From positions 1 to 64,000 of the forward strand of contig JAKAGT010000011.1 of the NCBI GenBank assembly GCA_021825585.1: DNA of 64,000 bases, given 5' to 3'. Below, one piece after another: positions 2,125-4,949 of this stretch (positions within the stretch are counted from its first letter, which is position 1; each line of letters starts with the position of its first letter). A model generated the notes under the pieces. That model saw nothing but the letters and a program-made list of their open reading frames with translations, was not told where the DNA came from and made no database searches. The translations under genes were made by a program, and so were the position numbers. The DNA comes from Bacteroidota bacterium (GTDB taxonomy: Bacteria > Bacteroidota > Ignavibacteria > Kryptoniales > JAKASW01).

Positions 2125-2163
2125 AAAGAGAGCCCCTCGATTTCGAGGGGCTCTCTTTCTTTG
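2125..2163 (+). terminator. rho-independent terminator
   Basis: AGAGAGCCCCTCGA and its perfect complement form a 14-bp GC-rich stem around a 2-nt loop. An A-run precedes the stem and TTCTTT follows it, about 65 bp after the stop of the T9SS protein. The flanking A and T runs could let it work in both directions. Confidence 0.85.
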
Positions 2164-2181: not shown

Positions 2182-2670
2182 AACCCCGAGGGGCTGATAT
2201 TATTTCAGAATTAGAACCGACGATGGGTATCCACCCAGTCATTGAAACAATGCCACCCCTTCGGGGTTGGGAATTAATGCCGTCGGAATGGCTATAATAA
2301 TGTCATCGCTTCGCGATTTGAAGAAAGCCGGGGATGGAAGTATTTGTGAGCGGAAGCCCGAAGGGCTGACATTACTGTAGAATGGAAAACAAAATTCCGA
2401 TTGGAACCCCGAAGGGGTGACATTATGCGGCGGGGCAAGAAGAGAACCAGGAAAGAAGCAGGAAGATTTGATCCTACCCTGTGTCTCCGGAATAATGCCA
2501 CGCCTCCGGGGTTGGGAATTAATGCCATGGGAATGGCTACAATAATATCATCGCTACGCGATTAGGAGAATTCTCGGAGAAGAGACAATTTCTAAGGAAA
2601 GCCCGAAGGGCTGGCATTACTGTAGAATGGAAAACAAAATTCCGATTGGAACCCCGAAGGGGTGACATTA
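2182..2670. repeat. phased hairpin array 1
   Basis: Nine short palindromes, each a 5-bp stem with a 2-3 nt loop, lie at 2183, 2255, 2305, 2355, 2406, 2500, 2550, 2600 and 2651. Within a unit the pitch is 50-51 bp. Four types recur in the order A (ACCCC-TTC-GGGGT), A2 (ATCGC-TTC-GCGAT), B (AGCCC-GAA-GGGCT) and C (ACCCC-GAA-GGGGT). B and C are the same flank-plus-hairpin design in the opposite orientation: all read TAATGYCA, hairpin, TT on one strand. The first hairpin is a degraded C and the A at 2500 has mismatches. The two B-C segments, 2355-2425 and 2600-2670, are almost identical. No convincing protein is encoded; short ORFs here are translations of the repeat. Confidence 0.9.
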
Positions 2671-2793
2671 TTTTACGGTTGCGTTGCATATTTCATCCAA
2701 CAGGTTGTAAAATTCATAGGACACGGGAGCATCTGGGCGATCTTCGCGAATGGTGGAAATCGAATGCTCCGGTTCCTAGAAAGTGGAGGAGTA

Positions 2794-3018
2794 ATGACGG
2801 TAGATGAGATTGAGAAAGAATTATTAGGACTCGACCCGAGGTCTCGTGCCGAGCTGGCACTCAAGCTGCTTAGTAGTCTGGAGGAGCTATCGGACAGCGA
2901 GAATGAGCTCTTGTGGGCAGAGGAGGGAGCGAGACGACACAACGAACTCGTCGAAGGTAAGGCTTCCTCTCGTCCAATTGAAGAGGTCGTAAGAAACCTG
3001 CGGGCCTCTCTGAAATGA
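2794..3018 (+). CDS. antitoxin of a ParE-type toxin-antitoxin pair (addiction module component family)
   Basis: A 74-residue acidic protein with the arrangement of the putative addiction-module component family (TIGR02574 type): an N-terminal helix MTVDEIEKELLGLDPRSRAE, then LALKLLSSLEEL, then a hinge with W-AEE-A-RR and a C-terminal helix near EEVVRNLRASL that would wrap the toxin. The ATG at 2794 is chosen because GTGGAGGA lies just upstream and because the longer in-frame reading runs back into the repeat array. The stop overlaps the toxin start by ATGA. By family, the antitoxin neutralises the toxin and may repress its own operon; no operator could be identified. Confidence 0.8.
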   Translation: MTVDEIEKELLGLDPRSRAELALKLLSSLEELSDSENELLWAEEGARRHNELVEGKASSRPIEEVVRNLRASLK

Positions 3019-3311
3019 CGGTCAGCGTCTCGATTCATGAATTGGCAGCCCTGGAGCTGGCTGATGCTGTAAATTATTATGAATCGAGAATTTCAGGCCT
3101 GGGCCGATCTTTCTTGGACGAGATTGAACGCGCGGTAAAGGAAATAACCGACCAGCCTGAAGCTGCCCCCGTGATCTACAAATTTGTCCGGCGTAAGTTG
3201 CTGCGCCGTTTTCCGTACAGCCTAATGTATTCCCTGACCGGTGATACGATCCGTATCCTATGCGTAGCTAATCAGAAGAGACGACCGAGTTATTGGTATC
3301 GTCGTGTGTAG
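3015..3311 (+). CDS. ParE/RelE-superfamily toxin
   Basis: A 98-residue basic protein with the ParE/RelE fold signature: an N-terminal beta strand (VSVSIHELAALELADA), a helix with YYESRISGLGRSFLDEI, then FPYSLMYSLTGDTIRILCVAN and a terminal RRPSYWYRR. This matches the family pattern R-FPY-i-Y-------i-i-aV-H--R-P-yW--R. The usual His of ----H--R is replaced by Q in ANQKRRP. ParE members poison gyrase and RelE members cut mRNA; which applies here cannot be told from the sequence. It is translationally coupled to the antitoxin (4-nt overlap). The pair sits between two hairpin arrays, typical of an accessory insertion. Confidence 0.85.
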   Translation: MTVSVSIHELAALELADAVNYYESRISGLGRSFLDEIERAVKEITDQPEAAPVIYKFVRRKLLRRFPYSLMYSLTGDTIRILCVANQKRRPSYWYRRV

Positions 3312-3434
3312 TGGAGTATCCTCCAGTCTTTCCTCTCCGTATCTGAATTGAACTTCGGGCGTCGCAGCTTTGGAAAATTTGACCTCACCCTGCCCCTCTC
3401 CTTCAGTGCGGAAATTCGGGAGTACCACTGGGGT

Positions 3435-3487
3435 GAAGGTAACCTTCTCCAGCGGTGTGTCGAAACCGAAGATTACTTTCCTCTTTC
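3435..3487 (+). repeat. diverged 53-bp direct repeat, left copy
   Basis: The 53 bases align without gaps to 4023-4075 with about 38 identities by eye; the core is AGCGGTG-GTCG. In the same reading frame both copies give related peptides (KVTFSSG... and KVVSFSG...). They flank hicAB, so they could be remnants of one duplicated gene or of an insertion event. No gene is recognised in 3312-3545. Confidence 0.45.
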
Positions 3488-3545
3488 CCGGAATGTTGCC
3501 CTTTGATACCGGATTGTTTAGCTTTGAATCAATGAGGAAGAAATA

Positions 3546-3803
3546 TTGGCGAGGAAGGAAAAAATAATATCTAAAATCCTTTCCGGCTCAGCCGATGTAG
3601 ACCTGACGTTTGATGATTTGCACAACTTGTTGGTTTCGATTGGATTTGAGGTGAGGATCAGGGGGAGCCATCATATCTACCGGAATCAAGGGGTGGAGGA
3701 GAAGATTAACCTGCAAAAGGACAATAAGAAGGCGAAACCGTATCAAGTGAAACAGATCAGGGCTATTCCCCTGAAATACAGATTTCTAATTGAGGAGGCA
3801 TAA
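3546..3803 (+). CDS. hicA: HicA-family toxin (mRNA interferase)
   Basis: An 85-residue basic protein of the HicA family, a double-stranded-RNA-binding-like fold that cleaves mRNA. The diagnostic block is VRIRGSHHIYRN, with the catalytic His in GSHH, followed by a KAKPYQVKQIR segment equivalent to the family's C-terminal Lys-rich strand and helix. The TTG at 3546 is taken as start because GAGGAAG lies 5 nt upstream and no ATG offers a better fit. The stop overlaps the start of hicB by one base, the usual hicA-hicB order and coupling. It lies in an island between the two hairpin arrays. Confidence 0.85.
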   Translation: MARKEKIISKILSGSADVDLTFDDLHNLLVSIGFEVRIRGSHHIYRNQGVEEKINLQKDNKKAKPYQVKQIRAIPLKYRFLIEEA

Positions 3804-4015
3804 TGTACAAATATGAAGTGATAATATTTTGGAGCGACGAAGATCAGGTGTTTGTCTCGGATGTTCCGGAGTTGCCAGGTTGCGTTGCTCATGGCAACAC
3901 GTACTCCGATGCGCTTGAGAATGCTGAAGATGCTATTCAACTGTGGGTCGAGACCGCGAAGGAATTTGGCGACCCAGTACCGGTTCCAAAAGGGAAACGG
4001 CTGCAATTCGCATAA
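3803..4015 (+). CDS. hicB: HicB-family antitoxin
   Basis: A 70-residue protein with the partial RNase H-like HicB domain: MYKYEVIIFWSDEDQVFVSD, then VPELPGCVAHGNTYSDALENAEDAI, matching the family pattern vPelPGc-a-G-t-eEAl-n---ai. It lacks a C-terminal DNA-binding domain, as in the short single-domain HicB class. By family it blocks the HicA active site. Its ATG overlaps the hicA stop (TAATG). The second copy of the diverged 53-bp repeat starts 7 bp after its stop. Confidence 0.85.
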   Translation: MYKYEVIIFWSDEDQVFVSDVPELPGCVAHGNTYSDALENAEDAIQLWVETAKEFGDPVPVPKGKRLQFA

Positions 4016-4022
4016 CCCTGAC

Positions 4023-4075
4023 GAAGGTAGTGTCCTTCAGCGGTGCGTCGTGGCATAAGGTTACCTTCTTCTTCC
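4023..4075 (+). repeat. diverged 53-bp direct repeat, right copy
   Basis: Partner of 3435-3487 on the far side of hicAB; see that entry for the alignment. Downstream to about 4130 the same frame stays open (REFETGGELRLKGDPPG), but no gene is recognised. Confidence 0.45.
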
Positions 4076-4138
4076 TCCGTGAGTTCGAAACGGGAGGAGA
4101 GTTGAGATTGAAGGGTGACCCGCCGGGGTAGTCGGAGA

Positions 4139-4920
4139 AGCCCGAAGGGCTGACATTATTGCAGAATAGAGAACGGAAGCGAATCAGAACCCCGAAGGGG
4201 TGACATAACGGACAGGATGAGATTAGAAGATTGGGTTGAAGCCGATGGAACAATGCCACCCCTTCGGGGTTGGGAATTAATACCGTTGGAATGGCTATAA
4301 TAATATCATCGCTTCGCGATTTGAAGAAAGCTGAGAGTGAAGATAAACGTGTGGAGAAACCCGCAGGTCCAACAATTGTACAGGATTTGGATGGTTCAAT
4401 CTAGGGCTAAGCCCGAAGGGCTGACATTATTGTAGAATGGGAATGAAACACCAATTGGAACCCCGAAGGGGTGACATAACAATGAAATTGGGATAATGAT
4501 GGGTCGTTATCGAATGCGGTGAGATAATGCCACCCCTTTGGGGTTGGGAATTAATACCGTTGGAATGGCTACAATAATGTCATCGCTTCGCGATTTGAAG
4601 AAAGCCGGGGATGGAAGTATTTGTGAGCGGAAGCCCGAAGGGCTGACATTATTGTAGAATGGGAATGGAACACCAATTGGAACCCCGAAGGGGTGACATA
4701 ACAATGAAATTGGGACAATGATGGGTCGTTATCGAATGCGGTGAGATAATGCCACCCCTTTGGGGGTAGGAATTCGTGTCGTTGGTGTGGTCACAGTAAT
4801 GCTATCGCTTCGCAATTGGGAGGATTCTCGGAGAAGAGACAATTCTAAGGAAAGCCCGAAGGGCTGACATTATTGTAGAATAGAAAACGGAAGCGAATCA
4901 GAACCCCGAAGGGGTGACAC
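4139..4920. repeat. phased hairpin array 2
   Basis: Same family as array 1. Hairpins lie at 4139 (B), 4189 (C), 4258 (A), 4308 (A2), 4358 (decayed B), 4410 (B), 4460 (C), 4532 (A), 4582 (A2), 4632 (B), 4682 (C), 4754 (A, degenerate), 4804 (A2, one mismatch), 4853 (B) and 4903 (C). Spacing is 49-52 bp inside units and 69-72 bp from C to the next A, giving a 222-bp period. Segments around 4433-4540 and 4655-4762 differ at only a few positions, so the array grew recently by tandem duplication of a whole four-hairpin unit. The stretch 4605-4650 also matches 2328-2373 of array 1. No gene lies inside. Confidence 0.9.
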
Positions 4921-4949
4921 GACATCTTAAGGTTCACATAAAATTCTTC

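What the first reader, a model, noticed from the sequence alone, without database searches (positions are those of the whole stretch)
2182..4920. Hairpin arrays with a constant 50-bp pitch
In both arrays the small palindromes repeat at 49-52 bp inside a unit (for example 2255, 2305, 2355, 2406 and 4532, 4582, 4632, 4682) and at 69-72 bp (once 94) between units. Four hairpin types always come in the order A, A2, B, C, oriented forward, forward, reverse, reverse, giving a 222-bp period. Fifty bp is close to five helical turns, so all stems would face the same side of the DNA. Even a decayed hairpin (4358) keeps its slot. Simple duplication explains copies of the unit but not the regular pitch between four different hairpins inside it. 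A protein-binding or supercoiling-sensitive scaffold is one reading.
Basis: seen in the sequence. Interest (0 to 1): 0.72.

Follow-up and report, generated by a model that had tools for sequence, protein, structure and literature searches.

The report
Double-hairpin ends of an IS200-like element
The regularly spaced hairpins are repeated end-sequences of a small transposon family (IS200-like) whose ends each carry two hairpins about 50 bases apart, and that spacing is kept in relatives across many bacteria even though the DNA between the hairpins is not.

Summary
The window carries two arrays of 5-bp-stem, TTC-loop hairpins at 48-51 bp. They are end-sequences of elements whose gene, an intact Y1 HUH transposase (TnpA, IS200-like), lies inside matching arrays on contig C18 of the same genome. 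Across 85 loci with TnpA homologues (57% identity or more, mostly Bacteroidota, several phyla) the typical layout is an inner and an outer hairpin in tandem on each side, inverted about the gene. Same-orientation neighbours peak at 51 bp (195 of 274 at 47-53); opposite-orientation neighbours do not. Spacers are no more alike than shuffled sequence. There are no side peaks one helical turn away, so helical phasing is not supported, but neither is 'accident of one ancestor'. Outer hairpins follow a CTAYAAW box at a fixed 13 nt; dispersed copies share homology only up to the outer hairpins. The TnpA fits 'subclass 1.2' of Y1 transposases, which the 2018 survey (PMC6006769) lists without REP sequences. 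The window arrays are tandem TnpA-less copies of a four-hairpin element. I infer that the pitch is the spacing TnpA needs between two hairpins on single-stranded DNA; this is untested. New variant of the IS200/REP kind.

The parts
2182..2201 (-). decayed outer' hairpin at the start of array 1
   Evidence: 3-mismatch match
2249..2268 (+). hairpin A = inner hairpin, right end
2299..2318 (+). hairpin A2 = outer hairpin, right end, preceded by CTATAAT box
2354..2373 (-). hairpin B = outer hairpin, left end
2405..2424 (-). hairpin C = inner hairpin, left end
2494..2513 (+). hairpin A (inner), one stem mismatch
2544..2563 (+). hairpin A2 (outer), loop TAC
2599..2618 (-). hairpin B (outer)
2650..2669 (-). 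hairpin C (inner)
4138..4157 (-). hairpin B (outer), start of array 2
4188..4207 (-). hairpin C (inner)
4252..4271 (+). hairpin A (inner)
4302..4321 (+). hairpin A2 (outer)
4357..4376 (-). decayed hairpin B keeping its slot
   Evidence: read from sequence
4409..4428 (-). hairpin B (outer)
4459..4478 (-). hairpin C (inner)
4526..4545 (+). hairpin A (inner)
4576..4595 (+). hairpin A2 (outer)
4631..4650 (-). hairpin B (outer)
4681..4700 (-). hairpin C (inner)
4748..4767 (+). hairpin A (inner), imperfect
4798..4817 (+). hairpin A2 (outer), imperfect
4852..4871 (-). hairpin B (outer)
4902..4921 (-). hairpin C (inner), end of array 2

Best explanation
The arrays are tandemly multiplied, transposase-less copies of a four-hairpin mobile element of the IS200/REP kind. 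Each end of the element is a pair of hairpins in tandem: an inner one (AATGYC + 5-bp stem, TTC loop), an unconserved spacer, then a CTAYAAW box and, exactly 13 nt from the start of the box, an outer hairpin that marks the element's end. Shown: the architecture, its conservation around subclass-1.2-type TnpA genes, the fixed same-strand pitch of about 50 nt with unconserved spacers, and one clear case of dispersed copies whose homology ends at the outer hairpins. Inferred: TnpA (Y1 HUH) binds both hairpins of an end as folded single-stranded DNA, probably as a dimer, and cleaves at or near the CTAYAAW box or the outer hairpin, so the pitch is the reach between its two hairpin-binding sites rather than a helical repeat. 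The 222-bp arrays then grew by ordinary tandem duplication of whole elements. My confidence figure is for the element identity and the conserved pitch; for the two-hairpin TnpA mechanism alone it is about 0.5.
For: TnpA of 153 aa (PF01797, 89 bits) at C18:4109-4570, inside an array with the same A, A2, B, C hairpins. In 85 homologous loci, same-orientation hairpin neighbours peak at 51 (195/274 at 47-53) while opposite-orientation ones are broad; Markov-shuffled flanks gave 21 hairpins against 504. A canonical pair lies on at least one side in 37 of 42 loci at 65% identity or more, and 28 of 43 at 57-65%. Spacer identity is 0.346 vs 0.332 shuffled on the right and 0.392 vs 0.388 on the left. 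Perfect stems form at offset 13 from the box in 103 of 155 boxes and at no other offset from 10 to 16; stem position 2 is T-A 54, C-G 52, G-C 9. Genome-wide, free of TnpA, with gaps 14-44 allowed, all 20 hits have gaps of 26-29 nt and the reversed pattern gives none. The second TnpA of the same genome (C50, 51% identical) has TAC-type-loop hairpins of its own at 50, 51 and 48. G000 C20 and G003 C7 share only the element, from outer to outer hairpin, in unrelated flanks. Loop type clusters on the TnpA tree: 6 changes vs 14.6 shuffled, 0 of 500.
Against: No binding or cleavage was tested. The cleavage site and the active strand are unknown. Copies in the window were not caught moving: a sister species has the same array at the same place with fewer units, so this array is inherited and varies in length. 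20 of 85 loci lack a detectable canonical pair. Homologues at 45-57% identity show none with the strict loop set, though some carry other hairpins.
Confidence: 0.85

Rival explanations
1. A double-stranded scaffold: stems are phased on one face of the helix for a DNA-binding protein or for supercoiling.
For: 50-51 bp is close to 4.8-5 turns; the peak is narrow.
Against: No side peaks near 40 or 61 (5 of 274 neighbours at 35-44 and 5 at 57-66) and no phase between oppositely oriented neighbours; the unit is tied to a Y1 transposase gene and its two ends.
Confidence: 0.06
2. Accident: one ancestral unit had this spacing and was copied; nothing holds it.
For: Within one array, neighbouring units are near copies; several relatives have tandem copies with near-identical spacers.
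Against: Spacers between loci are saturated, while length varies by only a few bases; distances not inside an end vary freely. The same pitch is held by a TnpA only 51% identical in the same genome.
Confidence: 0.06
3. RNA-level elements: the hairpins act in transcripts as terminators, stabilisers or translation controls of tnpA, and mobility is secondary.
For: The left inner hairpin is often centred 12-25 nt upstream of the tnpA start, where it could block ribosome binding, as known for IS200 (own knowledge).
Against: It does not explain the mirror-image pair downstream of the gene, the boxes, or elements without tnpA; no Rfam family reaches its gathering score.
Confidence: 0.12

Closest known systems
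TnpA_Y1 subclass 1.2 (PMC6006769)
   Same: Y---Q--HH motif (84 of 85 homologues), WQ, about 150 aa, mostly Bacteroidota
   Different: The survey lists no REP sequences for this subclass; here 65 of 85 genes have paired hairpins on at least one side.
REP/RAYT REPtrons and REPINs (PMC2817692, PMC3116915, PMC8266576)
   Same: Y1 gene flanked by inverted hairpin repeats, with gene-less copies elsewhere; each TnpA has its own hairpin type
IS200/IS605 insertion sequences (IS608, ISDra2)
   Same: TnpA family by model score and distant sequence match to solved IS200-type transposases; terminal hairpins
   Different: Two hairpins per end, arranged as mirror images about the gene; no tnpB seen next to the C18 copy.

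Membership tests
RAYT / REPtron | REP-associated tyrosine transposase protein (NF047646, cut-off 80 bits) | tested here: not met
   27.6 bits; Y motif is Y---Q--HH, not Y---NP
RAYT / REPtron | GTAG or GTGG tetranucleotide at the 5' foot of the hairpin | tested here: not met
   Foot consensus is T-N-N-C
RAYT / REPtron | gene flanked by inverted hairpin repeats, copies elsewhere in the genome | tested here: met
IS200/IS605 family | Y1 HUH transposase of the family (NF033573, cut-off 55 bits) | tested here: met
   66 bits; Pfam Y1_Tnp 89 bits
IS200/IS605 family | single subterminal hairpin at each end, same orientation in both ends (feature from own knowledge of IS608) | tested here: not met
   two hairpins per end, mirror-image ends
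IS200/IS605 family | single-strand excision and integration | not testable with these tools
   needs biochemistry
TnpA_Y1 subclass 1.2 | Y---Q--HH signature and WQ motif | tested here: met
   84 of 85 and 84 of 85 homologues
TnpA_Y1 subclass 1.2 | no REP-like flanking hairpins (a description in PMC6006769, not a defining trait) | tested here: not met
   paired hairpins at 65 of 85 loci

The most novel reading that the evidence does not exclude
A family of Y1 transposases whose DNA ends are read as two hairpins at a fixed distance, so the enzyme measures about 50 nt of single strand; REP-like elements of this two-hairpin type are spread through Bacteroidota and neighbouring phyla and have been overlooked.
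Probability: 0.5. Interest if true: 0.72.

Novelty: new variant of a known kind. Interest (0 to 1): 0.64.

Why it matters
It gives a likely substrate to a transposase subclass that had none assigned, and adds a kind of transposon end, two tandem hairpins at a fixed distance, to the IS200/REP world. The fixed pitch with unconserved spacers is a direct, testable clue to how the protein sits on single-stranded DNA. It also supplies a simple signature (CTAYAAW, 6 nt, 5-bp stem, TNC loop, partner 50 nt upstream) for annotating these repeats in Bacteroidota.

Tried and rejected
Inner-inner gaps in the window and on C18 as remnants of tnpA: alignment scores no better than shuffles (p 0.10-0.90). Known RNA family: only sub-threshold matches, mainly plant miRNA models on the long inverted repeat between C and A. 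Plasmid and phage copies for empty sites: best 52% identical, no close pair. DNA folding energies of the two strands: equal or nearly so with the available parameters, so the active strand could not be told. Literature for the motif string: nothing. Boundary test over all loci: alignments often end 7 nt outside an outer hairpin, but a conserved hairpin next to unconserved DNA would give this anyway, so only the C20/C7 pair is used as evidence. Stem covariation counted on hairpins chosen by their stems was set aside as circular; the count starts from the box instead.

Full report
Observation. The window has two hairpin arrays, 2182-2669 and 4138-4921, as described. The hairpins have a 5-bp stem and a TTC triloop behind AATGYC. 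Centre distances within units are 48-51 bp, and the period is 221-222 in the second array. Nineteen matches fall in the arrays; shuffles of the whole window give a mean of 0.75.

Transposase. The genome has ten Y1_Tnp matches. One, an intact 153-aa TnpA at C18:4109-4570, lies in an array of the same hairpins. Its motifs are DHLH, WQ and YILNQEEHH. It passes the NCBIfam IS200 model (66 over 55 bits) and fails the RAYT model (27.6 under 80 bits). In the scheme of PMC6006769 it fits subclass 1.2 (Y---Q--HH), for which that paper reports no REP sequences and generally no IS200-type ends.

Relatives. Eighty homologous loci were fetched from genome contigs, and others from related genomes. The typical layout is outer', about 50, inner', about 15, tnpA, about 17, inner, about 50, outer. 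Over 85 loci at 57% identity or more, same-orientation neighbours peak at 51; opposite-orientation neighbours show no peak. There is one peak only, so a helical-phase reason is not supported. The spacers are as different as shuffled sequence, so the length is not just slow decay of a shared sequence. A canonical pair is found on at least one side in 65 of the 85 loci and on both sides in 25.

Fine structure. Outer hairpins follow a CTAYAAW box; the stem starts 13 nt after the start of the box in 103 of 155 boxes and never at offsets 10-12 or 14-16. Because boxes, not stems, were selected, this test is free of the stem criterion used elsewhere. Paired changes at stem position 2 (T-A, C-G, G-C) support a folded strand. 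Loops are TTC, TAC, TCC or TGC in most cases, closed by C-G; on the other strand these read GNA closed by C-G, a loop type known for very stable DNA hairpins (own knowledge). Conservation stops at the T after the outer stem.

Independence and co-inheritance. A second TnpA in the same genome (C50, 51% identical) has different hairpins (TAC-type loops) with the same pitch: 50, 51 and 48. Loop type follows the TnpA tree (6 changes vs 14.6 in shuffles), as expected if each TnpA keeps its own hairpin type.

Genome-wide spacing. A pattern for an inner hairpin followed by a boxed outer hairpin, with any gap from 14 to 44 allowed, was run over 119 genomes of the class. All 20 hits, in seven genomes, have a gap of 26-29 nt, and the reversed control pattern gave none.

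Mobility. Four-hairpin elements without tnpA exist: C20 in this genome and C7 in the sister genome G003 share about 80% identity from outer to outer hairpin, with unrelated flanks. G003 C10 holds a single B C A A2 unit like those of the window, so the natural unit is B C A A2. The window array itself is inherited: the sister genome G006 has it at the same place with fewer units.

Mechanism. Shown: architecture, fixed pitch, association, co-inheritance, a dispersed copy. Inferred: TnpA binds both hairpins of an end on single-stranded DNA and the pitch is set by the protein complex. Which strand is active and where it cuts are open.

Known kinds. It works like a REPtron or IS200 element but is a full member of neither by the features tested. 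[quoted passage not shown] here each end is such a dimer. I found no paper describing paired hairpins for this TnpA subclass, with the limit that only open-licence papers were searched, and neither ISfinder nor the supplements of PMC6006769 could be checked.

Noticed in passing
window 2797-4015: Two toxin-antitoxin pairs (Unstab_antitox/ParE at 2797-3311 and HicA/HicB at 3546-4015) lie between the two hairpin arrays.
   Followed up: partly
window 3604-4081 vs L175 1-478: The HicAB segment is 97.7% identical to sister genome G006, while the neighbouring gene is 77-82% identical over most of its length, which suggests recent exchange of the cassette next to the array.
   Followed up: no
L178 1175-1230: In G003 C7 a roughly 57-nt insert with its own palindrome sits in the loop region of the right inner hairpin.
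   Followed up: no
L179 962-1229 and L181 917-1179: G003 has a 268-bp repeat, 93% identical, at C33 and C39 that contains opposed outer hairpins 24 nt apart: another composite repeat.
   Followed up: partly
L046 1900-3050: The second TnpA of the genome (C50) has its own hairpin family with TAC-type loops in duplicated blocks.
   Followed up: partly
L155, L156, L158, L161: More distant Y1 homologues (31-40%) are flanked by longer palindromes of other kinds, some repeated in tandem.
   Followed up: no
window 2125-2160: Strong inverted repeat followed by T-rich sequence after the gene ending at 2060, probably its terminator.
   Followed up: no
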